From: Terrisporobacter othiniensis
Lineage (GTDB): Bacteria > Bacillota > Clostridia > Peptostreptococcales > Peptostreptococcaceae
Length of the DNA: 59,968 nucleotides
NCBI RefSeq assembly: GCF_000808015.1
Contig: NZ_JWHR01000113.1
Coordinates: 1 to 59,968 of the forward strand
Direction: 5' to 3'
In this document: positions 26,545-42,835 of the stretch, piece by piece
Numbering within the stretch: the stretch's first letter is position 1
Layout: each line of letters starts with the position of its first letter
The notes under the pieces: generated by a model
Database searches by the model: none
The model's input: the letters and a program-made list of their open reading frames with translations, nothing else
What the model was told of the DNA's origin: nothing
Position numbers and translations under genes: made by a program

Positions 26545-26582
26545 AAAAAATTACTGGAATATAAGTTCCAGTAATTTTTTAA
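26545..26582 (+). terminator. Terminator after the ior-buk-ptb cluster
   Basis: A 15-bp stem (26545-26559 with 26566-26580) built on TTACTGGAA / TTCCAGTAA has a 6-base loop and a T-run. Confidence 0.92.
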
Positions 26583-26743
26583 TTGTAAGTAAATTATATG
26601 TTATCTGTTATGTGGATAACGTATAATTTCCAACTTTGTTATTTGAGCAACGGGCGAAGCCGTTGGCAATAGGAAGTAGAGCGCCCACGCAGAGGCTTAA
26701 AGTGTTTCGCCGACACGTCGCTCAAGCAAAGCGAATTTTTTAT
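26582..26743 (+). repeat. Interspersed modular repeat, copy 1 (long form)
   Basis: Copy 1 starts ATTGTAAG and has a palindromic module (AAATTATATGTTATC / GATAACGTATAATTT), then AACTTTGTTATTTGAGC. An unusually GC-rich part follows, with CAACGG-gcgaag-CCGTTG and further small hairpins, and the end is AAAGCGAATTTTTTAT. Related copies lie at 29264 and 42725. The GC-rich core stands out in this AT-rich genome. It lies between converging genes, just after a terminator. Confidence 0.9.
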
Positions 26744-26771
26744 GCTTATAAAGCTCTACATTTTAGATTAT

Positions 26772-28157
26772 TTAATTATATCTAGGTTCACGTGCTTCTA
26801 TACCACTAAGAGCAGCCCAAACATAGAATATTAATCCTAAAGCTGCCCAACCAAGAATGATACCCCATTCATAAGGCCAAGATAATGAAGCTGGAGCACC
26901 AGGTAAATACATTATTCCTAGGAATAAACACATACAAATAGATACGAAGCCTACAAATCTAACTCTCTTAACTTTGTATGGTCTTAACATGTTTGGCTCT
27001 TTTCTTCTTAGTACTAAGAATGATAAGCAAACCATTGAATAAGATATTACTATACTACAACCACCTGCATTAGATAACCAAGTAAGCATATTTCTTCCTA
27101 AGAACGGTGATAAGGAAGTTAGGATACCGATTAATATTATTGCATTGCAAGGTGTTTTATATTTAGGATGTAACTTTGCTAAGAATGGTGGTAGCATACC
27201 ACAAGCTGCCATAGAATAAATAGCTCTACTTCCACCTACATAGAAAGAATTCCAGCTAGTAATTATACCAGCTATTCCACCTAAAATTAATATTTTAGAA
27301 GCTATTGAACTGTTATTGTAAACTTTAGCCATAGCATCCGCTGTAACTAGAGCAGAACCTTGAATTTCTGCATGATCCATAGCAAGAGATACACCAAGTA
27401 TTATCATAGCATACCAAATAACTGCCATAATAACAGATAGAATTAATATTTGGCCAATTTTCTTAAATGGTATATTCATTTCTTCTGCTGCTTGTGGGAT
27501 TACATCAAAACCAACATACATGAAAGGTGTCATAACAGCTACAGCCATAAGTCCACCGACTCCATCATTAAATAGAGGTTGTATGTTTGAAGTTGAACCA
27601 TTTACAAAAGATCCACTAATTAGGGCTAAACCAACTAATGTAATTAATACAGTACATAAACCTTGTAGAAATGCTGCTGTTTTTACTCCAATGTAATTTA
27701 TGATAGTGATTACTATGGAACTTACTATACCCACTATAACCCATGTAGCATAAACATCAAATCCAGCAATAGTGTACATATATCCTTTCACGTAATTTGG
27801 AAATAGATACTGTAACACTGTTGGAAGTGCAACTGTCTCGAAGGCTATTACAGATATGTATCCTAATATTATCGCCCAAGTACAGATAAAAGACGCATTT
27901 CTTCCCAGCGCTCGATAACTAAAGACTTGCTCTCCACCGCACTTAGGCATAGCAGATGTTAGTTCTGCGTATGCTTGTCCTACAAATAGTACCATTACGC
28001 CACCTATAACAAAAGCTAAGATAGCACCTAAAGTTCCTGCTGTTTGTATCCATTCTCCGGATAAAACAACCCATCCCCAACCAATCATTGCTCCAAATGC
28101 AAGCACAAATACGTCAGACTTGTTTAGGACCTTGTCAAAATTATCGTTTTTACTCAT
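26772..28157 (-). CDS. APC superfamily amino acid permease
   Basis: This 461-residue permease has 12 predicted membrane segments. The substrate-site loop GAMIGWGWVVLSG in segment 1 and the helix-6 region FMYVGFDVIPQAAEEM are typical of APC amino acid transporters. GGSRAIYSMAACGMLPPFLAKLHPKYKTP is the conserved segment 8-loop. It probably imports amino acids for fermentation. The start at 28157 follows AGGGGGTC. It is transcribed leftward toward repeat copy 1. The substrate cannot be set from sequence. Confidence 0.9.
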   Translation of the reverse strand: MSKNDNFDKVLNKSDVFVLAFGAMIGWGWVVLSGEWIQTAGTLGAILAFVIGGVMVLFVGQAYAELTSAMPKCGGEQVFSYRALGRNASFICTWAIILGYISVIAFETVALPTVLQYLFPNYVKGYMYTIAGFDVYATWVIVGIVSSIVITIINYIGVKTAAFLQGLCTVLITLVGLALISGSFVNGSTSNIQPLFNDGVGGLMAVAVMTPFMYVGFDVIPQAAEEMNIPFKKIGQILILSVIMAVIWYAMIILGVSLAMDHAEIQGSALVTADAMAKVYNNSSIASKILILGGIAGIITSWNSFYVGGSRAIYSMAACGMLPPFLAKLHPKYKTPCNAIILIGILTSLSPFLGRNMLTWLSNAGGCSIVISYSMVCLSFLVLRRKEPNMLRPYKVKRVRFVGFVSICMCLFLGIMYLPGAPASLSWPYEWGIILGWAALGLIFYVWAALSGIEAREPRYN

Positions 28158-28455
28158 ATAAAGACCCCCTAAAATTTTAAATACTTACTTTGTTAAAATT
28201 TTATATAGTATAATAATATAATAACAACTTTGGTAATAAATGTAAATTGGTTCTTTTATATTCTTGTATAAAAAGTATCATATACATATAAAATCTGAAT
28301 TGTAGCCTTTAAAAATTTTTCTTTGTATTAACAAATAAGATATTTTATAATAAAAAGAGTAAACAATATGATTATAAAAGTTTTATTTAAATTTAAAATG
28401 ATAAATAATTTGTACTGCTGATATATATAAAGAGTAAGTATTGGAGGTTGTAATA
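28158..28455. other. Divergent intergenic region
   Basis: About 300 very AT-rich bases separate the permease and racemase genes and must hold both promoters. I see no clear consensus pair, large hairpin, riboswitch or coding region in it. Confidence 0.5.
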
Positions 28456-29232
28456 ATGAATAATAAAGATAAGGCAATAGGTGTTTTTGATTCTGGCCTA
28501 GGTGGAGTAAGTGTATTAAAAGAATTAGTTCAAGCTATGCCAAATGAAAAATTTCTATACTATGGAGATTCTGCAAATGCTCCTTATGGAATAAAAACAA
28601 AGGAAGAAATAACTGAAAGGTGTGTAGACATTATAGAGTTTTTCCTGGCTAAAGGTGTGAAAGCCATAGTAATAGCTTGTAATACGGCAACTTCTGCAGC
28701 GGCTAATATGCTTAGAGAAAAATATTCTCACCTACCAATCATAGGAATGGAGCCAGCACTAAAAGTTGCTGCTGATGGAAAGATAGATAATACCATAGTA
28801 GTAATGGCAACACCTCTTACACTAAAAGAAACAAAGTTCAATGATTTAATGGCGAGATACAGTGATGATAATACTGTAATAAAAATGCCATGTCCAGAAC
28901 TTGTAAATATAGTGGAAAATGACTTATTAGATGATGAAGAAGTTGTTGAAAGCCAATTAAAAGATTATTACAAAGACTTGGATATGAGTAAAATCAATAG
29001 TGTAGTTTTAGGATGTACTCACTTTGTATTCTATAGAGAATATATGGAAAAAATATTAAATCATAGTATAAATATAGTTGATGGAAATTTAGGAACTACA
29101 AATCATTTAAAAGAAATTTTAAAGGATAAAGACGAGTTAAGGGATTATGATGAAGAGGGAAGTGTAACAATTTATAACTCTTCAGGAGATAAGAGGTTTA
29201 TAAAATTGTCAGAAAAACTATTAAATAGATAA
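28456..29232 (+). CDS. murI: Glutamate racemase
   Basis: MurI makes D-glutamate for peptidoglycan. The protein has DSGLGG at residues 12-17, the two catalytic cysteines in IACNTATS (Cys75) and VLGCTHF (Cys187), and YYGDSANAPYG. At 258 residues it has normal length. ATG 28456 is chosen because TTGGAGG lies 8 bases before it; the frame extends upstream only over the ribosome site. It stands alone, with its own terminator. Confidence 0.95.
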   Translation: MNNKDKAIGVFDSGLGGVSVLKELVQAMPNEKFLYYGDSANAPYGIKTKEEITERCVDIIEFFLAKGVKAIVIACNTATSAAANMLREKYSHLPIIGMEPALKVAADGKIDNTIVVMATPLTLKETKFNDLMARYSDDNTVIKMPCPELVNIVENDLLDDEEVVESQLKDYYKDLDMSKINSVVLGCTHFVFYREYMEKILNHSINIVDGNLGTTNHLKEILKDKDELRDYDEEGSVTIYNSSGDKRFIKLSEKLLNR

Positions 29233-29262
29233 AAAACAAAGTATTAAATACTTTGTTTTTTA
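29231..29262 (+). terminator. Terminator after murI
   Basis: The AAAAACAAAGTATT / AATACTTTGTTTTT palindrome is followed by T residues and starts at the murI stop codon. A-runs on the other side could make it work for the minus strand too. Confidence 0.85.
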
Positions 29263-29263
29263 T

Positions 29264-29346
29264 ATTGAAGGAAATAATATGTTATATGTTTTGTATATAA
29301 CGTATCATTTCCAACTTTGTTACTTGAGCAAAGCGAATTTTTTTAT
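29264..29346 (+). repeat. Interspersed modular repeat, copy 2 (short form)
   Basis: Copy 2 has the palindromic module (GGAAATAATATGTTATAT with ATATAACGTATCATTTCC), then CCAACTTTGTTACTTGAGC joined directly to AAAGCGAATTTTTTTAT. It lacks the GC-rich middle found in copies 1 and 3. Its right end overlaps the stop codon of the leftward kinase gene. Confidence 0.9.
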
Positions 29347-30974
29347 TCACATATTTTAAATTGTAAAATTACCTTAAATAAATCACCATCTATATTTAAA
29401 TCCATAGTACCATTTTGAGTATTAATGATACTTTGAGTAATAGATAGGCCAAGACCTGAACCTTCTGTATTTCTAGAAGAATCACCACGTCTAAATCTTT
29501 CTAAAAATTCATCTGGACTTAAATTTAATCTATAGTTAGATATATTTTTAAATATTATAGATATAGTATCATTTTCAACAAATAAATCTATATAAACTCT
29601 AGTGTTAGGAGCAGAGTATTTTGTAATATTTGTTATTAAATTTTCAAAAGCTCTAAAAGTTCTTTTACCATCGGCCATAGTAAATATAGGTTCATCTGGT
29701 GTGTCTATAATAAAATCGAGTCTACTTTCTTGAATTTTATCGTCTAATTCAACAACACTTTGTATTAAAAGTTCTTTAATATCAGTTTTTTCTATATGGA
29801 ATTCAATTTCACCACTACTAAGTTTTGCAGCTTCAAAAATCTCTTCAACTAGAATCTTAAGTCTTTTAGATTTTTTATCTAGAATAGATAAATAAGCTTT
29901 TCTAGTATTATCATCAATATCCTCACTTCTTAACATGTCCACATAGTTTATTATGGATGTTAAAGGTGTTTTTAAATCATGAGATACATTTGTGATTAAC
30001 TCTGTTTTCATTTTTTCACTTCGAATAGCGTTATCTACTGCTTTTCCTAAACCTTCGCTCATATTATTAATGTTATTAGCAAGTCTGGCAATTTGATCAT
30101 TGCCCCTAACTTCTAATTTATAGTCTATTGAACCTTCTTTTATAGATTCGATTTCTTTTGAAATATAATCTACATAATCGAATTTTTTACAAATTATTCT
30201 GAATAGATAGATACAAAGTACAAAAGTAACAAAATCTATAAATAATACAAATTTATAAGAGTATATAAAACCACCAGATATAGAATTAAGTATAATGAAT
30301 AAAAATATAGTTTCTACGATTAATCCTACACATAAAGAATAAGCTAATTTTCTGTTTATTGTTTTTTTACTTTTCTTACTAAATAAAGCTTTTATAAATG
30401 GAGATAAATAAGCTTTATTTAATAAATTATTTTTGTTATAAATAATATAATTAATTAGAAACAGCAGCAATAACAAGCAAATTGCATCATAAAATACAAA
30501 TTTATCATAAAAATATATATGTCTATTCATGCTATTTATACTTAAAAATACAGATATAATAACAAATAATAACGGTGCTTCTATAGTAAGTTTGTCGTAT
30601 AAGTAAATCATATATTTACTGAATCGAGTTTTAGCTTTAAGATTTTTCCTATATAGATTAAAACATATAAAAATTGCAATAATTGAAACTATGCAAATAG
30701 CTACTATTGTAGAAGCCACAATTCTATTATCTGTATAATAAATTCCTGGACCAAATAGAATAAATTTTCTAACTTCTGTCTGACCATACCAACCATAATT
30801 ATTCAAAAGATCTTCAAGGGTATATCTAATCAATGCAAAATGATCTCTAATCAAAAATAATAATGTATTAAAAAATAAAGAAGCAAATACAACCATTAAC
30901 AAAAGAGTAACAATCTTTATATAGGGATTTTTTGAAATGAGGTCTTTATTTAATTTTTTCAATTTTATAGCCAA
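29343..30974 (-). CDS. Membrane sensor histidine kinase (VanS-like)
   Basis: The first half of this 543-residue kinase has about six membrane segments (for example VTLLLMVVFASLFFNTLLFLI near residues 20-40). A HAMP-like linker follows, then HisKA with TNVSHDLKTPLTSIINY and an ATPase domain with FENLITNITKYSAPN, FLERFRRGDSSRNTEGSGLGL. Its first codons overlap the end of the response regulator gene by 29 bases. The extra membrane segments suggest sensing at or within the membrane, for example a cell-wall antibiotic or lipid. A decayed second copy of this gene lies upstream at 31815-32828. Confidence 0.93.
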   Translation of the reverse strand: MAIKLKKLNKDLISKNPYIKIVTLLLMVVFASLFFNTLLFLIRDHFALIRYTLEDLLNNYGWYGQTEVRKFILFGPGIYYTDNRIVASTIVAICIVSIIAIFICFNLYRKNLKAKTRFSKYMIYLYDKLTIEAPLLFVIISVFLSINSMNRHIYFYDKFVFYDAICLLLLLFLINYIIYNKNNLLNKAYLSPFIKALFSKKSKKTINRKLAYSLCVGLIVETIFLFIILNSISGGFIYSYKFVLFIDFVTFVLCIYLFRIICKKFDYVDYISKEIESIKEGSIDYKLEVRGNDQIARLANNINNMSEGLGKAVDNAIRSEKMKTELITNVSHDLKTPLTSIINYVDMLRSEDIDDNTRKAYLSILDKKSKRLKILVEEIFEAAKLSSGEIEFHIEKTDIKELLIQSVVELDDKIQESRLDFIIDTPDEPIFTMADGKRTFRAFENLITNITKYSAPNTRVYIDLFVENDTISIIFKNISNYRLNLSPDEFLERFRRGDSSRNTEGSGLGLSITQSIINTQNGTMDLNIDGDLFKVILQFKICE

Positions 30975-31668
30975 TACCCCACACCACCTTTAAGTATTTT
31001 GGATTTTTTGAATCTATTTCAATTTTTTGACGAATTCTTCTAATATGAACAGCCACAGTTTTTTCACAATTATAAGCATCTTCCTCCCAAACTCTTTCGT
31101 ATAGCTCATGAGAAGAAAACACCCTTCCTTGATTAGAAAGAAGTAATTCTAAAATTTTATACTCAATAGGTGTAACCTTTATATCATCTCCATCTAGAGT
31201 TACAGTCTTCGTTTCTTGGTTTAATTCTAAACCACCGCTTTTTAAAATTACCTTTTTATCTTCAATAGTGGAAGATGAATTTGTATCAGACATATTACCT
31301 AGATTTATATATCTTCTAAGGTGAGAACGAACTCTTGCAGTTAGCTCTAAAGGATTAAATGGTTTAGTTATATAATCATCAGCCCCCATATTTAATCCTA
31401 AAATTTTATCCATATCTTCAGATTTTGCAGACAATAAAATAATTGGTATATTTTTATCTTCTCTTATTTTCATAGTTGTTTTAAGACCATCCATATTTGG
31501 CATCATTACATCCATGATAATAAGTTTAATATCATTTTCTATAAGCATTTCTAAAGCTTGTAAACCATCATAAGCTTTTAAGATATTATATCCCTCAGGC
31601 TTTAAATAAAATTCAATAGCATCAACTATTTCTTTTTCATCATCAACAACTAAAATATTTTCATTCAT
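30946..31668 (-). CDS. OmpR-family response regulator (VanR-like)
   Basis: The receiver domain has VVDDEKEIVDAIEFYL and the phospho-acceptor Asp53 in LIIMDVMMPNMDG, and the DNA-binding domain is a C-terminal winged helix (VTPIEYKILELLLSNQGRVFS, CEKTVAVHIRRIRQKIE). At 240 residues it is a standard OmpR/PhoB protein. It is co-transcribed with the kinase. A GTAAT-rich sequence with a TATAAT box lies upstream of both this gene and the deacetylase gene at 33038, suggesting that the regulator controls both; this is inference. Confidence 0.94.
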   Translation of the reverse strand: MNENILVVDDEKEIVDAIEFYLKPEGYNILKAYDGLQALEMLIENDIKLIIMDVMMPNMDGLKTTMKIREDKNIPIILLSAKSEDMDKILGLNMGADDYITKPFNPLELTARVRSHLRRYINLGNMSDTNSSSTIEDKKVILKSGGLELNQETKTVTLDGDDIKVTPIEYKILELLLSNQGRVFSSHELYERVWEEDAYNCEKTVAVHIRRIRQKIEIDSKNPKYLKVVWGIGYKIEKIK

Positions 31669-31814
31669 AAATTCACCCCTTACAAAAATTATAGACTAAT
31701 TAATTATATCAAAATAAATTACCAATAACAGTGTATAATTATTACAAATTTATAGCTATTTCTTCTTAATATGATAATTAACAAATGTAGTTGATTTAGT
31801 TATCATTATGATGA

Positions 31815-32828
31815 TATTTTTCAAACTTTAAAATTACCTTGAATAAATCACCATCTATATTTAAATAGTACCATTTTGAGTATTAACAATACTTTGTATA
31901 ATAGAAAGACCAAGTCCAGAGCCTTCAGTATTTCTAGAAGAATCGCCTCGTTTAAGTCTTTCTAAAAACTCATCTTGACTTAAATTCAGTCTATAATTTG
32001 ACATATTTTTAATATTATGGATATAGTATTATTTTCAACCAATAAATCTATATAAACTCTCCTATTAGGAGCAGAGTATTTTGTTATATTTGTAATTAAA
32101 TTCTCAAAAGCTCTGAAAGTTCTTTTGACATCTATATATGGTAAATACAGTTTCATCAGGTGGATCCACAATAAAATTTAATCTACGTTCTTGAATTTTA
32201 TCTTCTAGTCCCACTACATTTTGTATTAAAAGTTCTTTAATATCAGTTTTTGCTATGTTGAATTCTATCTCACTGCTACTAAGTTTTGAGGCTTCAAAAA
32301 TTTCTTCTACTAAAATTTTAAGTCGCTTAGATTTTTTATCTAAAATAGATAGATAAGAGTTTTTAGATTAATATTTTTTGCAATAAGGGAAATTTAATCA
32401 TTACCTTTGATTTGCAATTTACAATCAATACTTGCATTTTTAACAGATTGAACTTCTTTTGAAATATACTCAATACAGTCGAATTTATTACATATCAATT
32501 TAAATACAAAAATATAAAATGTAAAATTTATAAAAACAAAATAAAAAAAATAATGCAGATGGATGTAAACACCCAGAATATATGGGAAGTACCATAACGA
32601 ACTCCAGAGCCAAATAAAAAGAATTGTCTTATGAGAATACTAGATAATCAAGGTCTATTATTATAAATTTCATTAAAAAAATAGTCAAAAAACTTGGTCT
32701 CTATAAATAAATCCTATTGTTTCTGCAAAAATAGATGCAGATAAAAACATAAAAAATAAAGAAAATATTTTTAAATAGGAATTATAAGCTCTTAAATTTT
32801 TAATGTAATTTTTGATGCTTAGAATCAA
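31815..32828 (-). pseudogene. Decayed copy of the VanS-like histidine kinase
   Basis: Read leftward, this stretch matches the intact kinase at 29343 over most of its length. The N-terminal YLKIFSLFFMFLSASIF and RQFFLFGSGVRYG correspond to YIKIVTLLLMVVFASLF and RKFILFGPGIYYT. The C-terminal FENLITNITKYSAPN is also kept. The HisKA segment with the phospho-accepting His is deleted, most membrane segments are lost, and small indels break the frame (for example 4 bases near 31865). A good ribosome site, AAGGAGGT, remains before a TTG at 32828. It has no adjacent response regulator. Confidence 0.88.
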
Positions 32829-32960
32829 AGATTATTACCTCCTTTTATATAATTTCTCTTCATCCAATCAATTATATCAAAAGAAAATATCAAAAGTAGT
32901 GCTTAATTATTACAAATTTATAACGATTTATGCGCAATATTACGTAATTGTAAGAAAATT

Positions 32961-33003
32961 GTTATTCTGTCGTAATCATTTAGTAATTTATAAAAGGTAT
33001 AAT
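32961..33003 (+). promoter_or_regulatory. 11-bp-spaced direct repeats and -10 box before the PIG-L gene
   Basis: GTTAT (32961), GTAAT (32972) and GTAAT (32983) recur at exactly 11-bp steps, and TATAAT follows at 32998-33003. No consensus -35 is present at the proper distance. This layout fits a promoter activated by an OmpR-type regulator bound to direct repeats. A further GTAAT lies at 32944. Confidence 0.55.
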
Positions 33004-33037
33004 TGATTTAAGACATGAGGGAGAAGGAGTGAATATT

Positions 33038-33820
33038 ATGATGAATAATAAGATTAAGCTAGCAATAAGTATAGCGGCATTATTAATGTTACCATTGTTT
33101 ATAACAGGATTTGAAAATGAAGAAGGTTATGGAGATACAAAATTTAAGGATAATGTAGTATTTTATGCACAACATCAAGATGACGAGACACTTTGGGCAT
33201 CAGCAGCAATTATAGAGGCAATAAATGAAGTAGGAGCAGACCATGTTTATGTGGTACAGGTATCTTATGGAACGGGAATAAAGATATTTGATAAGGAAAA
33301 AACTTTTGAAAACATGAGTGAAATGGAAAAGTATAAATATAGAGAAAGAGAATTTCTTGCAGCTGTTAAGGCGTTAGGTGTAAAACGAGAAAATGTAGTT
33401 TTATTACCACAACTAAATAAAACAGGTTCAACAAGCTTTAATTTAATGGAGGAAGTTGCTTTAAAATTTGAAAAGGAATTAAAAAGTGTAACACATGTTG
33501 CTCATACTTATAAATTAGACTGGCACTTACAACATTTAAAAAATGGTGCAGTAATTCAATCTTTATATAATGCAGGACAAATAAAAGATGTAAAATATTT
33601 TGTAAAGCCGGAGTATAAAAAAGATATTCCAGAGAGTGAAAGGATATTTTATAAAGCTATAAAAAAAGAAGATAGAGATAAAATAAGAAAAGCTTGTGAA
33701 CAGTATAAAATAATAGATAAAGATAAGAAAAGAGAAGGTATAGGGTATAAGTCAGATCATAGATCTTTCGATAGACTTATGGAAAACTATGATTCTATAC
33801 TACACACAGCAAGTATATAA
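33038..33820 (+). CDS. PIG-L family deacetylase, membrane-anchored or secreted
   Basis: The N-terminus has a hydrophobic signal or anchor (LAISIAALLMLPLFITGF, residues 8-25). The zinc-binding motif HQDDE follows at residues 46-50, the variant of the usual HPDDE. Distal histidines in DWHLQHL and KSDHRSF could complete the site. The family removes N-acetyl groups from GlcNAc-containing molecules. Next to a VanRS-like system, a role in remodelling cell-wall or surface sugars is reasonable, but this is inference. ATG 33038 follows GAAGGAG. Length (260 residues) is normal. Confidence 0.88.
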   Translation: MMNNKIKLAISIAALLMLPLFITGFENEEGYGDTKFKDNVVFYAQHQDDETLWASAAIIEAINEVGADHVYVVQVSYGTGIKIFDKEKTFENMSEMEKYKYREREFLAAVKALGVKRENVVLLPQLNKTGSTSFNLMEEVALKFEKELKSVTHVAHTYKLDWHLQHLKNGAVIQSLYNAGQIKDVKYFVKPEYKKDIPESERIFYKAIKKEDRDKIRKACEQYKIIDKDKKREGIGYKSDHRSFDRLMENYDSILHTASI

Positions 33821-33821
33821 G

Positions 33822-33863: not shown

Positions 33864-33934
33864 GTGTTAAAAGTTATAATTATTACAAATAATAATAAAT
33901 ATGTAAAAAATTAAAATAAATAGGAGGACTAGAG

Positions 33935-35707: not shown

Positions 35708-35718
35708 TTTAAAGATAC

Positions 35719-35780
35719 AAAAAGCATATACTAAGCAAAATTATAAGAGTCTGATACTTTACTTAATATATGCTTTTTAA
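35719..35780. terminator. Bidirectional terminator before the DTD2-dpaL operon end
   Basis: AAAAAGCATATA (35719-35730) pairs with TATATGCTTTTT (35767-35778) around a long loop. A-runs and T-runs on both sides fit termination in both directions. Confidence 0.7.
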
Positions 35781-35794
35781 TTATGTAATGAATT

Positions 35795-36730
35795 TTACCA
35801 AATAGGTAAATCCTTTGGAGTTCTTAGTTTTTTATGTTTAAAAGTAGGTACATTTAATTCTTCGGCAAGCTTTTTAATTTGATTTTTATAACCAGACTTT
35901 AAATTATCATGAATTACTATTCCGTCAATACTACCAATAATAGAGTCAGTACACTTTTTTAATAAATCATATTTTTCATCTTTATCATATTCACCTTGAA
36001 CTAACCATTGATTAGGAAGAACATGTCCCACAGAAATTTTATAATCCTTATCTATAATAATATTTGAGAAAGTTTCCTCAAAGTGCATACCGCCAGTGCA
36101 AAGAAGGATTTTTACTTCTTCTTCATCAGAGAAAACCTCTTGCAAAGATGTAGCCAGGGTCTTTACAGCAGTTTCATTAGTCCAACTCTCCAAAGTACTG
36201 CCTATTTCTATATCAAATAGAGGAACTTGATATTTATCTATTAAATTAATATTTCCATCTCTTATGGTACCTGTCCAATGAGTTCCTTCAGTCATTACCT
36301 TAAAATCATCTAGATTATTTTCAACTCTATGTTTTTCTATAGAAACTAATAAATTTCTTAAATATAGAGGATTGGAAGGAGCGTACACTCCTCCTACAAC
36401 ATCACCAGTTGAATGAACTGTAAGAATTTTATCTGGAGCTTTTTCTCCACCATGCCAGTTTACAACACCAGCTATGTCATAGTCTGAAAAGAACTCATTT
36501 AAAATAGGTATGTATTTATCGTAATCATAGCTTAAAACTTTATTAGTCTCTACATAAGTAAATAAATTATTATTTTTATCAACATAATTATAAATATCTC
36601 TGTTATCAAATTTTGTATTGCTCAACTTAAGGGGATAATTATTTTTTAAGTAGTTAAGAACCCTTGGTGCAACTTCATCTCTTTCATAATCTGTACAGAA
36701 AAAATATACAGCTTTTTTATTATAATTCAT
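35795..36730 (-). CDS. DTD2/GEK1-type D-aminoacyl-tRNA deacylase homologue
   Basis: This 311-residue protein matches the archaeal and plant DTD2 (DtdA/GEK1) family by motif order: WHGGEKAPDK (92-101), HSTGD (106-110), TEGTHWTG (147-154), FDIEIGSTLESWTN (172-185), CTGGMHFEETFSN (211-223) and GHVLPN (235-240). That family hydrolyses D-aminoacyl-tRNA and can remove aldehyde adducts on aminoacyl-tRNA. It differs from the usual bacterial DTD1, which is about 145 residues. It starts 5 bases after dpaL in the same operon, suggesting a shared role in D-amino acid handling. Substrate and activity are untested. Family call is good; function is inferred. Confidence 0.8.
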   Translation of the reverse strand: MNYNKKAVYFFCTDYERDEVAPRVLNYLKNNYPLKLSNTKFDNRDIYNYVDKNNNLFTYVETNKVLSYDYDKYIPILNEFFSDYDIAGVVNWHGGEKAPDKILTVHSTGDVVGGVYAPSNPLYLRNLLVSIEKHRVENNLDDFKVMTEGTHWTGTIRDGNINLIDKYQVPLFDIEIGSTLESWTNETAVKTLATSLQEVFSDEEEVKILLCTGGMHFEETFSNIIIDKDYKISVGHVLPNQWLVQGEYDKDEKYDLLKKCTDSIIGSIDGIVIHDNLKSGYKNQIKKLAEELNVPTFKHKKLRTPKDLPIW

Positions 36731-36735
36731 TGAAA

Positions 36736-37974
36736 TTACCTTCCTTCCACAAATGAACTTGGATTTTTACCATCATAAATTATTTCATCATATCCTATAG
36801 GGTCAGTATTGCCTTCTGTACTAAATATTAAAACTACAGAGTCTGAATTTAAATTCATAGCTTCTTTTATTTTTTTTAATTCATCTCTTTCCATTAATAA
36901 AGATAGTAACCCAAGACCAACTGCTCCAGATTCTCCAGAAATAATTTTTTTATCATCTCCTATAGGAGATGATAAAATCCTCATTCCTTTAGCACTTACA
37001 TAATCAGGACAAGCAGCATAGAAAGATGCAAAATCTCTAAGAATAGGCCAAGTAGCAGTATTGGGTTCACCGCAATTTAGACCCGCCATTATTGTTTGTA
37101 AATCTCCAGTAACTGCATGAGGATTTCCGTCACCAGACAAAGCTGATTTATAAATACAAGCAACAGTTTTTGGCTCCACAATTGTGGTAATAGGAGGATT
37201 ACCTTTATACTTATTTGCGAAATATCCTAAAACTCCTCCAGCCATTGAGCCTACACCAGCCTGCAAAAATAAGTGAGTAGGTTTTTCAATACCATATTCT
37301 TGTAATTGATCATAAGCTTCATTTGCCATTGTCGTATACCCTTGGGTAATAAAATTAGGAACATCTTCATATCCACCCCAAGCTGTATCTTGAACTAGAT
37401 ACCAGTTATTTTCCTCAGCTAACTTAGCAGCTTTTCTTACAGCATCATCATAATTAAGGTCCGTAATAGTTACTTCATAAGCTCCAACTTGGCGAATTGC
37501 CTCAGCTCTAACTTCTACAGTTCCTTTTGGCATAAGAACTATAGATTTGCATCCTAATTTTGATGCAGCAAATGCCACACCTTTACCGTGATTTCCGTCT
37601 GTAGCAGTTATAAAAACCATATCTTTCAAATATTCTTTTATTTCAGGGCTTTGCAAATCTTCAAAAGTTGTTTTGCTATCATCTAGATTTAGTTTTTTAC
37701 ATACTATTTTAAAAATAGCATATAAACCACCCAAACCTTTAAAAGCATTTAAATTAAATCTATAGGATTCATCTTTAATATAAATTCCTTTAATATTTAG
37801 TTTTTTTGCTAAATTGTTTAAAGATATAAGAGGTGTTATTTTATAGTTACTAATTGATGAGTGAAAATTCCTTACTCTGTCAGATATTTCTTCATTTAAA
37901 AATAGAGGTAAATTATGATTGTCCGTAGATGTTGAAATTACATTAATTCCTAATTGTTCTTCAAAGCTTATCAT
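36736..37974 (-). CDS. dpaL: Diaminopropionate ammonia-lyase
   Basis: DpaL is a fold-type II PLP enzyme that splits D- or L-2,3-diaminopropionate to pyruvate and ammonia; enzymes of the family also act on D-serine. The N-terminal RNFHSSISNYKITPLISL and the PLP lysine (Lys79) in RFNLNAFKGLGGLYAI are diagnostic, as are TATDGNHGKGVAFAA and LQAGVGSMAGGVLGYF. Length is 412 residues from ATG 37974, which follows TTGGAGGAATAT; the open frame extends to a TTG that is part of this ribosome site. It is followed by the DTD2 homologue. Confidence 0.93.
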   Translation of the reverse strand: MISFEEQLGINVISTSTDNHNLPLFLNEEISDRVRNFHSSISNYKITPLISLNNLAKKLNIKGIYIKDESYRFNLNAFKGLGGLYAIFKIVCKKLNLDDSKTTFEDLQSPEIKEYLKDMVFITATDGNHGKGVAFAASKLGCKSIVLMPKGTVEVRAEAIRQVGAYEVTITDLNYDDAVRKAAKLAEENNWYLVQDTAWGGYEDVPNFITQGYTTMANEAYDQLQEYGIEKPTHLFLQAGVGSMAGGVLGYFANKYKGNPPITTIVEPKTVACIYKSALSGDGNPHAVTGDLQTIMAGLNCGEPNTATWPILRDFASFYAACPDYVSAKGMRILSSPIGDDKKIISGESGAVGLGLLSLLMERDELKKIKEAMNLNSDSVVLIFSTEGNTDPIGYDEIIYDGKNPSSFVEGR

Positions 37975-38062
37975 CTTATATTCCTCCAAATATATAATTT
38001 ATAAAAACTAGTATAAAATAATTATAGCAAAATATAGCTGTTGTTATTGAAGGTAAAGATAA

Positions 38063-38077
38063 AATACTTGTAGTATT
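38063..38077. promoter_or_regulatory. Small palindrome in the dpaL upstream region
   Basis: AATACTTGTAGTATT is a perfect 6-bp dyad with a 3-base centre, between the divergent dpaL and 38157 genes. It could be an operator for either side. Evidence is limited to the symmetry. Confidence 0.3.
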
Positions 38078-38156
38078 ATAAGTTTATATTCCAAAATGAA
38101 GAAAAAGTATAATATAATAATTGTATTAATAGAAATAAATACAAGGATGTGAAAAA

Positions 38157-38369
38157 ATGCAAAATAAAAACTCTATTATGGCAACGTTCTTTATAGGTAC
38201 TATAGGGGTTATGCTTATATTGAGTGGAATAATTTTTCTTATTTATTGTTTTTCATATGAGGTGAAAAATAAGAAAAAAGTGTACAATGAATCAAAGATA
38301 TTAGCCATAGTATGTATAATAATTGGAATAATAATGTCGACTTTATCATTTTTATATTTTACATATTAG
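38157..38369 (+). CDS. Small two-segment membrane protein, unknown
   Basis: This 70-residue protein has two strong membrane segments (FFIGTIGVMLILSGIIFLIY and ILAIVCIIIGIIMSTLSFLYF) joined by a lysine-rich loop. AAGGATG lies before the ATG, and a TATAAT box lies about 45 bases upstream. The next gene begins 39 bases downstream. No family is recognised. Confidence 0.65.
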   Translation: MQNKNSIMATFFIGTIGVMLILSGIIFLIYCFSYEVKNKKKVYNESKILAIVCIIIGIIMSTLSFLYFTY

Positions 38370-38408
38370 GGTATTATAAATTATCTAGAATATAAGGGGG
38401 GATGTATT

Positions 38409-39062
38409 ATGTCATTTACAAGTAAAATACTTTTGTTTTTTGTAATCTTGGGGGCAATTAATATAATCATACTTTTAGTAATAAAGAATAAATCTAGATC
38501 TATAAAGGTTGAAAAAAAGGAAAAACGCAAAAAAGGTGATATAAGAGTATTAAATTATGATGATGAAGATTTACTTTGTATGGTGGACAATGATTTAGAG
38601 TTTAAGTATGGGTATGGATGTAGTGATTTAGAAGTATTTAAAAATATGAAGACAACTCATAGAAATATGTATACTTTACTCTGGTTTGATACAGAGATGC
38701 AAAATGGAGGATTAGGAGAATATTTTTTTAATGTAAGCAATATAACTATGAATTATTTAGAAAAAGCGCTTGAAGACGTGAAGGCTTTGGAATTATTCAA
38801 AGAATATAGGCAATTTATGGAAAAAAATAATGTCATAGAAGCAATAAATTATATAAATAAAAGAAGTGTTGAAGAGTATTCTGAATTTATGAGTGAGTTT
38901 GATTTTTCTAACTTTAATAACTTATACGAAAAAATAGATTTAAGATTATTTATGGCTAATTATATTAGAGAAAATATAGTTGATTTTTCTGATTTAAGTG
39001 AAGAAGAATTAAAAATTTTAAGAGAAATGGAAGAAGAACAAAAGTTAATAGAAAATAATTAA
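38409..39062 (+). CDS. Membrane-anchored DUF4375 (DMP19-like) protein
   Basis: The protein has 217 residues: one N-terminal membrane anchor (ILLFFVILGAINIIILLVI), a basic linker, then a helical domain with LLWFDTEMQNGGLGEYFFN. This matches the DUF4375 signature, where a 'D-x-x-NGG-x-x-x-FF' core is conserved. DMP19 of Neisseria is a DNA-mimic member, but function in Firmicutes is unknown. The acidic C-terminus (EEELKILREMEEEQKLIENN) is notable. AAGGGGGGAT precedes the ATG. Confidence 0.7.
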   Translation: MSFTSKILLFFVILGAINIIILLVIKNKSRSIKVEKKEKRKKGDIRVLNYDDEDLLCMVDNDLEFKYGYGCSDLEVFKNMKTTHRNMYTLLWFDTEMQNGGLGEYFFNVSNITMNYLEKALEDVKALELFKEYRQFMEKNNVIEAINYINKRSVEEYSEFMSEFDFSNFNNLYEKIDLRLFMANYIRENIVDFSDLSEEELKILREMEEEQKLIENN

Positions 39063-39070
39063 GTGAATAT

Positions 39071-39101
39071 AAAATGCCACCCATTTTGGGTGGCATTTTA
39101 T
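39071..39101 (+). terminator. Terminator after the DUF4375 gene
   Basis: A 13-bp GC-containing stem, AAAATGCCACCCA with TGGGTGGCATTTT, has a 3-base loop. Confidence 0.93.
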
Positions 39102-39136
39102 AAGCTTAAGATAAAATACTTTATAGAGGAGACGTT

Positions 39137-40504
39137 ATGAGCGAACAAATTGATTTAACTAGTGGTAATATTGTTGAAAAATTGGTAAAACTATCATTAC
39201 CGATAATGGGAACTGCTTTTATACAAATTGCCTACAGCCTTATAGATATGATTTGGGTTGGAAAAATAGGTAGTAAGTCTGTGGCTGCAGTTGGAACAGC
39301 AGGATTTTATCCTTGGCTTGCCATGGCATTTATTATGATTTCGAAAGTCGGTGGAGATATTAAAGTTGCACAAAGTGTAGGAGAAAAAAATGAAAAAGGC
39401 ACTAAATACTATATTAAATCTGCAATTGAGATTAATATGATTTTATCTTTTTTGTATAGTTTAGTTCTAATCTGTTTTAAGAGTCCGCTTGTTGGATTTT
39501 TTAAATTAGAAGATATGGAAGTTATTAATATGGCTGAGCAATATTTAGTTATTGTAGGATTCGGTATGATGTTTTATTTTATAAACCCTGTATTTACATC
39601 AATATTCTTAGGCCTAGGAAATAGCAAGTCACCATTTAAAATAAATACAATAGGTTTAGTTACTAATATTATTCTAGACCCAGTGTTAATATTTGGGATA
39701 GGACCATTACCTGAAATGGGGGTGGAGGGTGCTGCTCTTGCTACGATTATATCTCATATAGTTGTGTCATTATGTTTTATCTATTTAATTATGAAAGATA
39801 ATGCAAATCATTTTAAAATTAAACTATTTAGGGAAATTGATTTTAGTTATTATAAAACTTTATTTGTACTTGGGATACCAGTGGCACTTCAAAATGGATT
39901 ATTTACTATTTTTTCTATGATAATGGGAGTTATAGTAGCATCTTTTGGGCCAGTAGCAATTGCAGTTCAAAAAGTAGGGTCTCAAATAGAATCCATATCT
40001 TGGAATAGTTGTGAAGGATTTGCATCGGCTTTATCTAGTTTTGTAGGGCAAAATTATGGTGCTAAGAAAATTGATAGAATAAATAAAAGTATTAAATATG
40101 CATTAATAGGTGTATTTATATGGGGTATTTTAACAACAGTAATATTAGTATTTTTAGGAGAGCCAATATTTAGATCTTTTATAAATGAACCAGAGGCAAT
40201 TTTAAAAGGCGTAGATTATTTAAAAATACTAGGATATTCCCAACTTTTTATGTGTTTAGAAATTACAGTTGCTGGAATTTTTAAAGGATTAGGTAGAACA
40301 TATATACCTTCAATAATAATTGCAGTATTAACTGGTTGTAGAATACCATTAGCAATTTTACTTTGCAGGCCTGATATACTTGGGTTAAATGGAGTTTGGT
40401 GGAGTATAACATTAAGTAGTATGGTAAAAGGTATTTTATTGGTGAGTATTTTGGTTGTCCTTAGGAAAACACATAAATTATATTTGAGTGAAGATTATCT
40501 ATAA
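39137..40504 (+). CDS. MATE family efflux transporter
   Basis: This 455-residue exporter has 12 predicted segments. Typical MATE features are LSLPIMGTAFIQIAYSLIDMIWVGKIG at the N-terminus and, at the start of the second half, GIPVALQNGLFTIFSMIMG, plus GAALATIISH. It exports drugs or metabolites using a Na+ or H+ gradient. GAGGAG precedes the ATG. It is followed by a MerR regulator and an MFS exporter gene, so the block looks like a small drug-export region. Confidence 0.92.
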   Translation: MSEQIDLTSGNIVEKLVKLSLPIMGTAFIQIAYSLIDMIWVGKIGSKSVAAVGTAGFYPWLAMAFIMISKVGGDIKVAQSVGEKNEKGTKYYIKSAIEINMILSFLYSLVLICFKSPLVGFFKLEDMEVINMAEQYLVIVGFGMMFYFINPVFTSIFLGLGNSKSPFKINTIGLVTNIILDPVLIFGIGPLPEMGVEGAALATIISHIVVSLCFIYLIMKDNANHFKIKLFREIDFSYYKTLFVLGIPVALQNGLFTIFSMIMGVIVASFGPVAIAVQKVGSQIESISWNSCEGFASALSSFVGQNYGAKKIDRINKSIKYALIGVFIWGILTTVILVFLGEPIFRSFINEPEAILKGVDYLKILGYSQLFMCLEITVAGIFKGLGRTYIPSIIIAVLTGCRIPLAILLCRPDILGLNGVWWSITLSSMVKGILLVSILVVLRKTHKLYLSEDYL

Positions 40505-40517
40505 GTAAAAACTATTG

Positions 40518-40561
40518 CATTATAGACTATGGAGTTACACCATAGTCTATAATGTTTTTAG
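40518..40561 (+). terminator. Terminator after the MATE gene
   Basis: A perfect 15-bp stem (40518-40532 with 40540-40554) with a 7-base loop is followed by TTTTTA. Confidence 0.92.
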
Positions 40562-40582
40562 AAATAAAAAGGAGTTGAGAAA

Positions 40583-41409
40583 TTGAAGTTTTCAATAGGA
40601 CAGGTAAGTAAATTATTTGAGATAAGTAAAGATACTTTAAGACATTATGATAAAATTGGAGTTTTAAAGCCAGAAGTGAATGAAACTAATGGATATAGAT
40701 ATTATTATGAAGAAGATCTTGAGAAGTTAGGATTAATACTTGAAACTAAATATCTTGGAATACCTCTTTCTGAAATAAAAAAACTATAGAAAGTGAAAGT
40801 TTAATGCAGTATAAAAATTTAATTGAAAAACAAGAAGAATCTATAAAGAAACAAATAGAAGAATTAAGGATAAAAGAAAAACACTTACAAGAATCTAGAG
40901 AAACACTAGATAAAATAATAAAGTTTAAAAATGAATATGATTTTAGTAAGTTAAATATATATGAAAAATCAATGAATCTTTATGGAATTAAGTTCAAAAA
41001 AATATTTGATGGAAGCTTTTATAAACAATTTTTATTAGAGTTAGAAGAAGGTTTAGGATTTGATGAAGAAGAGTATTACTACATTCATCAAATTTTAGAA
41101 GATGGAACCTTAGAAGAAAATCAATATGAGATTTATATAAAAGAAAATAAAAATAATAAAGATTTAATTCAAAAGTATATAGCTAAAAAAGATTTAGAAG
41201 TAAGTAAAAAATATTTAAGTGGTAATGTTATTTCAACTTGTTTTTATGGAAATGAAGAGGAATTAAATGAATATATAGTATCTCTTAGTAAGTATTTTAA
41301 TGAAAATAAATGTACAAATGTTTATATAATGTATGATTTTTCTTTGCCAAAACAAAATAATAAGGACGATTATTTTGTGAAAATAATTTTAGAAATAAAA
41401 AATAGTTGA
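40583..41409 (+). pseudogene. MerR-family regulator interrupted by a -1 frameshift at A7
   Basis: Frame one (TTG start at 40583 behind AAGGAG) gives a full MerR DNA-binding domain, FSIGQVSKLFEISKDTLRHYDKIGVLKP to YLGIPLSEIKK, and stops at a TAG at 40787. Read one base back at the run of seven A, the protein continues as TIESESLMQYKNLIEKQEESI with a coiled coil and an effector domain to 41409, about 275 residues in all. One extra A, or a -1 slip, would restore it. It could be a recent pseudogene, a phase-variable gene, slippage-dependent expression or a sequence error. The target is likely the MFS gene downstream. Confidence 0.8.
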
Positions 41410-41436
41410 CTGTAGACTTACTCCATTCTTTAGAAT
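41406..41436 (+). promoter_or_regulatory. MerR-type promoter with 19-bp spacer before the MFS gene
   Basis: TTGACT (41406-41411), a 19-bp spacer and TAGAAT (41431-41436) lie just after the MerR gene. Spacers of 19 bp are the hallmark of MerR-activated promoters, and the adjacent regulator supports this. No clean dyad is visible in the spacer. Confidence 0.45.
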
Positions 41437-41469
41437 AAGAAAATGAAGAAAGAATTAGGAGGTAAAGTT

Positions 41470-42669
41470 TTGAATTTATTTAAAAATAGAGTATTCACAA
41501 CAATTTTATTTACAGATATAATACAGCAAGCAGCTATCTGGATAAGAAATATATCTGTAATGTTTTTTATTATGGATGTTACCAATAAGGATCCAATGGC
41601 AATTTCTGCACTAAATTTTGTAGAAATGGTACCTATGTTTTTATTAACTTTTTTAGGGGGAATAATAGCTGATAAATATAATCCTAAGAAATTAATGTTT
41701 CTAGGGGATTTTTTAAGTTTTATTTCTTTTGTGATTTTAGGGTCTTTAATTAGTAAAGGATATATGGTAGCTATATTTATAACAGTGTTAATATCGGCTA
41801 TAGTTACGCAATTTTCTTATCCTGCATCACAAAAATATTTTAAAGAATATGTAGATGAGAAAGAGATTGATTTGGCTATAGGGATCTCTCAACTATTAGC
41901 ATCCATATTTCCTATAATAGGACCATTTTTAGGATCATATTTTTATTTTACTTTTGGAATAGGAAAAACATTATTAATAATAGCCTTTATGTTTTTACTT
42001 TCTGTGGCTCTTATCATTACACTACCAAACAAACAATTTGAAAAAATAGAAAGTGATGGATTTATAGAGGATGCAAGGCTTACATTTAATTACGTGAACA
42101 ATAAAAAGGTGATAAAAGTTTTTGCAAAAATGTTATTTATTCTTTCCTTTGGTATTGGAATATCAGGTAATTTAGATATATTTTTGATTACAGAAAGATT
42201 GGGATTAAATGAAGAGTTTTATCAGTTTTTCTCAGGTATTGCAGGAATTGGGGCGGTAGTTGGGGGATTATTATATATTGCAATATCCAAATATTTAAAA
42301 GATATGAAGATCGTATATTCTTTAATAGGAGTATTTGCTATAACAGTATTTTTAGAAGGATATTCAACATTACCTGTATTTACAATGATTTTACAATTCA
42401 TAGATAATGTTATAGGTGCTTTATTAAGTGGATATGTAATGACACTTATGACTAAAATAACAGATCAAGAATACTTGGGTAAAGTAAATGGACTTACATC
42501 AACATTAATGTATTTTGGATTGATGATATCATTTGTTTTATCGGGTGTAATACTTAAATATTCATCAATAGTAATAGCATTTTCTTTAGCGAGTTTTACA
42601 TTTGTTGTATGCTTTATAATGCTTTATAGAGAAATTAAAAGAGGATTATTGGATGATTTAAATAATTAG
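41470..42669 (+). CDS. MFS transporter, multidrug-efflux-like
   Basis: This MFS protein of about 399 residues has 12 predicted segments and resembles the MFS_3/enterobactin-exporter-like group (FTDIIQQAAIWIRNISVMFFI, then GGIIADKYNPKKLMFLGDF). I chose the TTG at 41470 because a canonical AGGAGGT lies 6 bases before it. An upstream in-frame ATG at 41443 has no ribosome site. The gene is probably controlled by the MerR gene immediately upstream. The substrate is unknown. Confidence 0.87.
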   Translation: MNLFKNRVFTTILFTDIIQQAAIWIRNISVMFFIMDVTNKDPMAISALNFVEMVPMFLLTFLGGIIADKYNPKKLMFLGDFLSFISFVILGSLISKGYMVAIFITVLISAIVTQFSYPASQKYFKEYVDEKEIDLAIGISQLLASIFPIIGPFLGSYFYFTFGIGKTLLIIAFMFLLSVALIITLPNKQFEKIESDGFIEDARLTFNYVNNKKVIKVFAKMLFILSFGIGISGNLDIFLITERLGLNEEFYQFFSGIAGIGAVVGGLLYIAISKYLKDMKIVYSLIGVFAITVFLEGYSTLPVFTMILQFIDNVIGALLSGYVMTLMTKITDQEYLGKVNGLTSTLMYFGLMISFVLSGVILKYSSIVIAFSLASFTFVVCFIMLYREIKRGLLDDLNN

Positions 42670-42672
42670 TTA

Positions 42673-42724
42673 AAATCAAATTTATATTATATAACTGCAA
42701 TTATAATATAAATTTGATTTTTTT
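42673..42724. terminator. Terminator after the MFS gene
   Basis: A perfect 19-bp AT-rich stem (42673-42691 with 42702-42720) with a 10-base loop and T-run ends the MFS transcript just before repeat copy 3. Confidence 0.88.
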
Positions 42725-42835
42725 ATTGTAAGGAAATTATATGTTATCTGTTCTATGGATAACATATAATTTATAACTTTGTGACTTGAGCAACGGGCAA
42801 AGCCGTTGGCGACATAAGCGAAGCGAATTTTTTAT
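42725..42835 (+). repeat. Interspersed modular repeat, copy 3 (middle form)
   Basis: Copy 3 has a perfect palindromic module (AAATTATATGTTATC / GATAACATATAATTT), then AACTTTGTGACTTGAGC, the hairpin CAACGG-gcaaag-CCGTTG, and the end AAGCGAAGCGAATTTTTTAT. It abuts the stop codon of the leftward cyclase gene. Like the other two copies, it lies between converging genes in the same orientation. Confidence 0.9.

What the first reader, a model, noticed from the sequence alone, without database searches (positions are those of the whole stretch)
26582..42835. Three-copy modular repeat in convergent intergenic regions
The sequence shows three related elements (26582-26743, 29264-29346, 42725-42835), all in the same orientation. 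Each has an AT-rich palindrome of about 40 bp, a constant AACTTTGTTACTTGAGC linker, an optional GC-rich hairpin module (CAACGG/CCGTTG) and an AAGCGAATTTTTTAT end. All three lie just after the terminator of a rightward gene. In two of them the right end touches or overlaps the stop codon of the leftward gene; in copy 1 the gap is about 30 bp. The GC-rich core is foreign-looking in this genome. Copies differ by gain or loss of whole modules, and the palindrome arms are kept by wobble pairs or paired changes, which suggests selection for a folded RNA or a mobile palindromic unit.
Basis: partly seen in the sequence, partly recalled or inferred. Interest (0 to 1): 0.75.

Follow-up and report, generated by a model that had tools for sequence, protein, structure and literature searches.

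The report
Mobile hairpin element after gene terminators
The three repeats are copies of a small gene-less mobile DNA element, built from interchangeable hairpins, that has spread through a family of clostridia by inserting just after the T-run that ends many genes; what moves it is unknown.

Summary
The window (a Terrisporobacter-like genome) carries three same-strand modular repeats (26581-26741, 29262-29344, 42725-42833), each directly 3' of the T-run of a rightward gene's intrinsic terminator. They belong to a large family: matches in 6 of 6 genus genomes and 32 of 71 genomes of the bacterial family. They are mobile: of 49 elements from three relatives, 21 were called empty at the orthologous site of another species, 17 of them with readable junctions. 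Insertion falls at the 3' edge of a T-run and the element brings its own right-hand TTTTTTA, so there is no ordinary target duplication. Elements point with replication (26 of 27 right-end matches in 800 kb of one genome), more than terminator orientation predicts. Hairpin arms covary, and the family's usual right end holds GCGAAGC, an extremely stable DNA mini-hairpin. Best reading: a non-autonomous element moved as single-stranded DNA, IS200/IS605-like in behaviour. Against membership: no consistent Y1 transposase partner; group II maturases are mostly absent too. The 'convergent 3'-end' idea is not supported: most copies lie between co-directional genes. Closest in print: bcr1 and REP/IS200-type elements. 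The mobilising enzyme is the open question.

The parts
26575..26580 (+). Target T-run (T6) of the intrinsic terminator of the upstream MFS gene
   Evidence: stem AAAAAATTACTGGAA/TTCCAGTAATTTTTT; MFS by Pfam
26581..26741 (+). Copy 1, whole element (palindrome left module + core + two extra hairpin modules)
   Evidence: absent at the syntenic site of L079, L080, L081 and L085, where the right flank is only loosely alignable
26585..26631 (+). Copy 1 left-end palindrome (type A left module)
   Evidence: arm pairing of the family
26648..26665 (+). Copy 1 core hairpin CAACGGGCGAAGCCGTTG
   Evidence: covariation of this hairpin
26675..26725 (+). Copy 1 optional modules m1 (26675-26700) and m2 (26701-26725)
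   Evidence: like modules are gained or lost elsewhere
26726..26741 (+). Copy 1 right end GCAAAGCGAATTTTTT (loop AAA instead of the family's usual GAA) with element-borne T6
29262..29344 (+). Copy 2, short form lacking the core hairpin
   Evidence: L079 and L081 have a near-empty site, L080 a different modular element there
29270..29312 (+). Copy 2 left-end palindrome
29328..29344 (+). Copy 2 right end GCAAAGCGAATTTTTTT, overlapping the leftward kinase stop codon
42725..42833 (+). Copy 3, whole element (palindrome left module + core)
   Evidence: absent from the syntenic site in L079, L080 and L081
42732..42772 (+). Copy 3 left-end palindrome
42791..42808 (+). Copy 3 core hairpin CAACGGGCAAAGCCGTTG
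42818..42833 (+). Copy 3 right end GCGAAGCGAATTTTTT containing GCGAAGC
   Evidence: GCGAAGC stability in PMC4686876 (passages)

Best explanation
These are copies of a non-autonomous mobile DNA element family of Peptostreptococcaceae. SHOWN: the element inserts in one orientation at the 3' edge of a T-run, usually behind a hairpin as in an intrinsic terminator. It carries its own right-hand TTTTTTA, makes no ordinary target duplication, has moved since the compared species split, gains and loses internal hairpin modules, keeps its hairpins by paired changes, and points with the replication fork. INFERRED: it moves as single-stranded DNA on the lagging-strand template. The folded ends and the T-rich sequence shared by target and right end would be recognised, cut and rejoined, in the manner of IS200/IS605 or REP elements. 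In the long left-end form the target T-run pairs with an A-run inside the element, like a guide. The enzyme works in trans and is not identified. Host benefit, if any, is inferred to be incidental: terminators are a harmless landing site.
For: Family: 6 of 6 genus genomes, 32 of 71 family genomes. Mobility: 49 elements examined, 21 called empty, 7 shared, 12 other, 9 without target (alignments, its output cut). Target: the 34 nt upstream fold below -6 kcal/mol at 45 of 59 left ends against 133 of 507 control T-run sites on the replication-oriented strand (Fisher 8e-14). Element-borne end: right T-run is 6 long in 100 of 137 and followed by A in 127 of 137; where the left run is not 6, left equals right in 6 of 67. 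Orientation: 26 of 27 right-end matches with replication against 158:46 co:counter genes with a terminator (Fisher 0.02) and 133:120 hairpin-plus-T-run sites (Fisher 2e-6). Folding: paired changes in the core hairpin and the terminal hairpin; on all 41 distinct 44-nt cores 23 double-change cells against 8.1 in shuffles, 0 of 500 as high (29 of them with the pair-counting tool). T-run/A-run stem partners match better than swapped ones.
Against: No Y1 transposase is found in 17 of 32 element-positive genomes, and Y1 presence is not associated with the element (15 of 32 vs 22 of 39). None of seven Y1 loci scanned has the element's right end. Some insertions lost bases at the right junction (18 in L102 at 15364, 28 in L107; window copies 2 and 3), which a clean HUH reaction does not predict. 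The Terrisporobacter palindrome form lacks the A-run that would pair with the T-run. Predicted folds of window copies pair the right end with the linker CTTTG rather than form the mini-hairpin (copy 3 as RNA; copies 1 and 2), and copies 1 and 2 have GCAAAGC, not GCGAAGC. Orientation is weaker in some genomes (17 of 20 in G004, 20 of 25 in G054, hand counts from the cut list). G.T exceeds A.C mismatches (18 vs 5 in cores; 48 vs 28 in palindrome arms), which fits folding of the + strand as DNA or RNA alike.
Confidence: 0.55

Rival explanations
1. Site-specific-recombination-like insertion at a T-rich core, as proposed in print for the bcr elements (TTTAT): a circular form with a T6A core recombines with a target T-run.
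For: T6A sits at both ends of the filled site and once in the empty site, e.g. L090 vs L190 and L110 vs L212; [quoted passage not shown]
Against: Replication-oriented bias and the preference for an upstream hairpin are not required by it; no recombinase candidate was tested.
Confidence: 0.2
2. RNA-mediated retroelement that uses a group IIC-type intron protein: the A-run acts like EBS1 pairing with the T-run as IBS1, and reverse splicing or reverse transcription places it after terminators.
For: Bacterial-C group II introns insert just after rho-independent terminators and are strand-biased (PMC8919778, passages); the long left end pairs T6 with A6.
Against: Group II maturase domain found in 4 of 32 element-positive genomes and in none of G001, G002, G004, G053, G056, G059; I noticed no group II intron ends or domain V (by eye, no model search on the elements outside the window); the only Rfam match at gathering score in the window is a cobalamin riboswitch.
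Confidence: 0.12
3. A conserved regulatory RNA or 3'-end processing element of the flanking genes.
For: Covariation, stable folds, position after terminators.
Against: Absent at 21 of 49 orthologous sites, varied flanking genes, upstream terminator limits sense transcription (inference), five of 84 right ends fall in crude ORF calls.
Confidence: 0.08
4. A classical MITE moved by a DDE transposase.
For: Short, non-coding, high copy number.
Against: No terminal inverted repeats seen in the alignments, one orientation relative to target, no duplication of the local T-run.
Confidence: 0.05

Closest known systems
bcr1 (and bcr2, bcr3) of the Bacillus cereus group
   Same: Short non-coding repeats in many copies, described as mobile, with a TTTAT motif associated with mobility and a proposed recombination-like mechanism (PMC6542083, passages; PMC3446304, passages).
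IS200/IS605-derived elements and REP/REPIN sequences with TnpA-Y1
   Same: Hairpins near the ends, no inverted repeats or target duplication, orientation fitting the lagging-strand template, T-rich target matching the element end (IS608/ISDra2 lagging-strand targeting: PMC6006769, abstract and passages; other end rules recalled).
   Different: No consistent Y1 transposase; the possible guide pairing is 6-12 nt rather than a tetranucleotide.
Group IIC introns
   Same: Insert directly after intrinsic terminators and are strand-biased (PMC8919778, passages).
   Different: Elements are about 80-250 nt, no intron ends or domain V noticed by eye, maturase mostly absent.
BOX elements of Streptococcus pneumoniae (recalled)
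   Same: Modular: end modules with optional internal hairpins.
   Different: Not compared by sequence; target choice differs (recalled).

Membership tests
IS200/IS605-derived non-autonomous element | Ends shared with a Y1-transposase-encoding element | tested here: not met
   Y1_Tnp in 15 of 32 element-positive genomes; no right-end match in the 7 Y1 loci scanned, of 25 fetched, and L239 read in full has other ends
IS200/IS605-derived non-autonomous element | Insertion 3' of a fixed short target, no target duplication, right end resembling the target | tested here: met
   with a minority of junctions that lost bases
IS200/IS605-derived non-autonomous element | Subterminal hairpins on the mobile strand | tested here: met
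   Core and terminal hairpin covariation; left-end palindrome; whether the folded molecule is DNA was not testable
IS200/IS605-derived non-autonomous element | Preference for the lagging-strand template | tested here: met
   26 of 27 and 57 of 59 with replication in G053; partly confounded with gene direction; weaker in G004 and G054
[quoted passage not shown]
   Not seen by eye in the aligned ends; no scan was made
REP/REPIN | A cognate RAYT (TnpA-REP) gene | tested here: not met
   PF01797, taken to cover RAYTs (recalled), is absent in 17 of 32 element-positive genomes
Group IIC intron | Intron-encoded maturase and group II ribozyme core | tested here: not met
   GIIM in 4 of 32 element-positive genomes; no Rfam intron at gathering score in the window
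Group IIC intron | Insertion just after intrinsic terminators | tested here: met
bcr1 family | Sequence similarity to bcr1 | not tested
   No bcr1 sequence was available; original paper not held
MITE | Terminal inverted repeats and target-site duplication | tested here: not met

The most novel reading that the evidence does not exclude
A class of terminator-parasitic, single-strand DNA elements moved by an enzyme that is neither a Y1 HUH transposase nor a group II intron protein, in which an internal A-run guide of 6-12 nt pairs with the terminator T-run and extra-stable mini-hairpins mark the end, and which grows by nested insertion of small hairpin modules.
Probability: 0.3. Interest if true: 0.75.

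Novelty: new variant of a known kind. Interest (0 to 1): 0.52.

Why it matters
It gives a large natural set of recent, precisely mappable insertions (dozens in some genomes) of an element whose mobiliser was not found in many hosts. That makes a concrete question testable: what, besides Y1 transposases and group II introns, can place single-stranded hairpins after terminators at the replication fork. It also explains a high-copy repeat that the annotation seen here leaves blank (on Paraclostridium plasmids 4 of 6 matches have no feature under them, though that gene table is incomplete) and that could mislead small-RNA or terminator annotation in clostridia.

Tried and rejected
Own genome: none is held. 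Phage carriage: no match in phage records; the seven viral contigs show only the linker in unrelated sequence; two further viral scans with right-end patterns found nothing. Copy 1 had no plasmid match at 1e-5, but a 52-nt core found six Paraclostridium bifermentans plasmid records; the neighbourhoods of three of them show no obvious mobiliser apart from a Tn3-family transposase on one.

Convergent-gene role: rejected as a family feature, although 3 of 3 window copies being in convergent gaps, 8 of 47 gene junctions, is unlikely by chance (0.003) and stays unexplained.

Target-site duplication: rejected because the right T-run does not follow the left one (spearman 0.04 in G053, but 0.27, p 0.008, in the other loci, which is weak evidence the other way; overall the two runs are equal in 62 of 137, mostly because both are 6). 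Y1 and group II partners: no association; absence in draft assemblies is not proof. Comparison of G053 with G054 was abandoned: 147,678 of 400,000 fetched bases of G054 read N. A first regex for the core stem was out of register and is not used. Of the 59 left-end matches, many have no right end within 200 nt (decayed copies and probably some chance matches), which is why the 27 right-end matches are quoted beside them. Some right-end regex hits (2 mismatches allowed) are probably chance, e.g. L077 and perhaps L118.

Controls against or neutral: the 44-nt core alone does not fold better than shuffles by energy (z 0.05 as DNA, 0.55 as RNA) and its predicted best fold is not the covarying hairpin; the long left end is only slightly better than shuffles (z -1.24 DNA, -1.15 RNA). 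In one search, 137 of 500 shuffles reach the number of pairs with a double change and 36 of 500 the number of pair types. One search used 29 of the 41 distinct 44-nt cores (12 left out when typing); one search counts all 41, of 69 distinct core strings, the other 28 having other lengths. Only 24 of 41 core loops are G-N-A; 30 of 41 terminal loops are GAA. In the palindrome arms 186 of 840 cells are neither standard nor G.T or A.C pairs, partly regex noise.
Full report
WHAT IS THERE. The three reported repeats exist, all on the + strand. From the sequence and the family boundaries their limits are 26581-26741, 29262-29344 and 42725-42833. Each begins directly after the T-run (6, 6 and 7 T) of the intrinsic terminator of a rightward gene (MFS transporter, Asp/Glu racemase-like, MFS transporter) and ends in its own T-run (6, 7 and 6 T). 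Anatomy, left to right: AT-rich palindrome; linker AACTTTGTKAYTTGAGC; core hairpin CAACGG..CCGTTG (copies 1 and 3); in copy 1 two further modules; right end GCRAAGCGAATTTTTT. Copy 2 lacks the core. Core GC is 0.667 in a window of 0.286. All three fold better than shuffles, as RNA and as DNA.

A FAMILY. One scan of species genomes with the linker gave 30 loci: 18 in Terrisporobacter sp. MAG.180, one each in T. mayombei DSM 6539 and T. petrolearius LAM0A37, and 10 elsewhere that show only the linker. Copy 3 as query matches 6 of 6 genomes of the genus, 5 to 52 matching pieces each, some being one copy's palindrome read on the other strand, and 32 of 71 genomes of the bacterial family (candidates scored per genome were capped, mostly at 12). 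In a sample of 247 genomes of the order 38 match; 36 of these carry handles of the family set, several only weakly, and the other two (G081, G129) are weak (at most 3 candidates scored per genome). The window is syntenic with G002, G003 and G004, the best pieces at 86% identity, hence 'Terrisporobacter-like'; its organism was not told.

MODULES. Reading 91 right-end contexts in Terrisporobacter loci and those of other genera shows: a left module of one of two kinds, or none; the core TTTTGAGCAACGG..CGTTGGCGACATGA; and the end GCGAAGCGAATTTTTTA. Type A left module is the palindrome seen in the window. Type L is longer, and its first bases together with the target T-run are complementary to an internal stretch ending in an A-run: TTTTTTACGCT/AGCGTAAAAAA in several genomes, TTTTTTACATTT/AAATGTAAAAAA in T. 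petrolearius, TTTTTTATGCT/AGCATAAAAAA in G063. Over 55 distinct left-end pairs, some of them spurious regex hits, the mean paired run is 2.93 against 1.92 for swapped partners, 2.31 being the largest of 2000 shuffles. Small modules of about 25-29 nt appear inside the core loop, before the core or before the right end. The same orthologous element can have them in one species and lack them in another (L133 vs L219, L136 vs L206).

INSERTIONS AND BOUNDARIES. For 49 elements of G003, G004 and G002 the orthologous place in another species was sought: 21 empty, 7 shared, 12 other (4 of these with a left flank not conserved), 9 no target. Four of the 21 (L096, L102 at 1376, L131, L137) have unclear junctions. 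In clean cases the empty site reads T-run-flank and the filled site reads T-run, element, GCGAATTTTTT(A), flank (for example L090 vs L190, L110 vs L212, L097 vs L200, L109 vs L187). Where the local T-run is 7 or 8 long the right run is still mostly 6. Over 137 elements the right run is 6 in 100 and followed by A in 127; where the left run differs from 6 the two are equal in 6 of 67. The right T-run is therefore carried by the element and is not a copy of the target. Some junctions lost bases on the right (18 in L102 at 15364, 28 in L107; window copies 2 and 3). At the copy 2 site T. petrolearius has a different modular element and T. mayombei and G004 a near-empty site, so that site may have a longer history than one insertion. 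Two right ends run straight into a second left-end start that then decays (876336 and 1617740 of G053).

TARGET AND ORIENTATION. In 800 kb of G053, 59 left-end matches (up to 4 mismatches) were found. The 34 nt upstream fold below -6 kcal/mol at 45 of 59, against 133 of 507 control T5-8A sites on the replication-oriented strand and 120 of 1006 on the other. Elements point with the direction of most genes, that is with replication: 57 of 59 left ends, or 26 of 27 right-end matches. This exceeds what terminators offer: 158 co-oriented and 46 counter-oriented genes have one (Fisher 4e-4 for 57:2; 0.02 for 26:1), and hairpin-plus-T-run sites are nearly equal on the two strands (133:120). The leading strand was assigned by gene bias (256 of 327 and 290 of 349 ORFs), not by a mapped origin. 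From the cut list, counted by hand with the switch point chosen to fit, the figures are 39 of 40 in G053, 37 of 38 on G056 contig C5, 14 of 15 in G059, 17 of 20 in G004 and 20 of 25 in G054. In this orientation the element's top strand is the lagging-strand template. Neighbours: mostly genes oriented like the element (43 of 59; 59 of 84 in Terrisporobacter, with 11 convergent, 6 divergent, 5 inside crude ORFs and 3 other, 8 more skipped near contig ends). The convergent setting of the three window copies is not a family rule.

FOLDING. On all 41 distinct 44-nt cores (of 69 distinct core strings) 95.1% of cells pair (shuffles 90.9%) and 23 cells carry changes on both sides (shuffles 8.1); 0 of 500 shuffles reach either. 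With 29 of them the pair-counting tool gives 93.5% and 18 cells, and sliding the partner destroys pairing; there the number of double-change pairs alone is not significant (137 of 500). The decisive pairs are in the core hairpin (A-T 23, G-C 13) and the first pair of the terminal GC(GAA)GC hairpin (G-C 25, A-T 7, C-G 1). Loops are GAA in 30 of 41 terminal hairpins and G-N-A in 24 of 41 core hairpins. GCGAAGC with a GNA loop is an extraordinarily stable DNA mini-hairpin (Tm about 78 C; PMC4686876, passages). This hints, but does not prove, that the folded molecule is DNA: window copies 1 and 2 have GCAAAGC, energy models instead pair the right end with the linker CTTTG, and folding energies of the core alone are unremarkable.

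WHAT MOVES IT. If the element behaved like an IS200/IS605 derivative or a REP, a Y1 transposase should be near. Y1_Tnp was found in 15 of 32 element-positive and 22 of 39 element-negative genomes (Fisher 0.48), and in none of G001 to G004. A published account of the three Terrisporobacter type strains names IS21, IS66, IS607, IS3, IS110 and IS256 and does not mention IS200/IS605 in the part read (PMC10564238, section 10 part 1; its figure is not held), with four and six IS in T. mayombei and T. glycolicus. Seven Y1 loci scanned here show no right-end match, and the IS200 read in full in element-rich G053 has other ends. Group IIC introns share the landing site and a strand bias (PMC8919778, passages), but their maturase domain is in 4 of 32 element-positive genomes. 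In 15 of 32 element-positive genomes neither was detected; several assemblies are drafts. The enzyme may belong to an unrecognised family, may be transient (plasmids of Paraclostridium bifermentans carry copies) or may be a host function.

HOW IT LIKELY WORKS. Shown: mobility, T-run target usually behind a hairpin, one orientation, element-borne T6A, covarying hairpins, module turnover. Inferred: the top strand, exposed as lagging-strand template, folds; an unknown enzyme cuts at the T-run on the left and at T6A on the right, joins the ends and inserts the single strand behind another exposed T-run. For comparison, IS608 and ISDra2 work on the lagging-strand template (PMC6006769, abstract and passages). 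I put about 0.9 on the mobile-element statement and 0.5 on the single-strand mechanism.

KNOWN OR NEW. By behaviour it resembles IS200/IS605-derived elements and REPs; by size, T-rich ends and proposed recombination it resembles bcr1 (PMC6542083 and PMC3446304, passages). It fails membership tests that could be run for Y1-driven elements, REPs, group II introns and MITEs. I found no description in print, within these limits: the right-end string GCGAAGCGAATTTT occurs in no held paper; searches on Terrisporobacter plus repeat (10 of 331 listed; one of them searched for passages), on non-autonomous elements at terminators (2 listed), on Peptostreptococcaceae repetitive elements (1 listed) and on Romboutsia repeats (10 of 5,784 listed) listed nothing on it; subscription journals are mostly not held. 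I file it as a new variant of a known kind.

Noticed in passing
window 29351-29905 and 31816-32366: Part of the histidine kinase gene region is repeated downstream at 83-90% identity (repeat families D1, D3, D4, D7), suggesting a duplicated and partly decayed sensor kinase.
   Followed up: no
window 55692-55881: Cobalamin riboswitch, 110 bits.
   Followed up: no
L137 / L247 and L141: Element-like insertions inside sequences that look like T-box leaders (GAGTGGTAACGCGG recalled as a T-box motif), at a T-run that is not a terminator; the relative L207 lacks the L137 insertion.
   Followed up: partly
L105, L114, L117, L135, L137: Five right ends fall inside crude ORF calls in Terrisporobacter, so some core-only copies may have entered genes.
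   Followed up: partly
G053:C1, region C minus strand offset 58437: An element copy appears, by eye, interrupted by another insertion with a transposase-like reading frame.
   Followed up: no
L342, L343, L344: Paraclostridium bifermentans plasmids carry the core; in two of about 19-20 kb it lies beside DUF1659/DUF2922/YvrJ genes.
   Followed up: partly
window copies 1-3: All three copies sit in convergent gaps although only 8 of 47 gene junctions in the window are convergent; unexplained given the family pattern.
   Followed up: partly
window 26632-26741, 29313-29344, 42775-42833: In the window copies the linker CTTTG can pair with CAAAG/CGAAG of the right end, an alternative to the terminal mini-hairpin.
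   Followed up: no
G054 loci L296-L315: About 37% of the fetched bases read N, which makes this assembly unsuitable for empty-site work.
   Followed up: no
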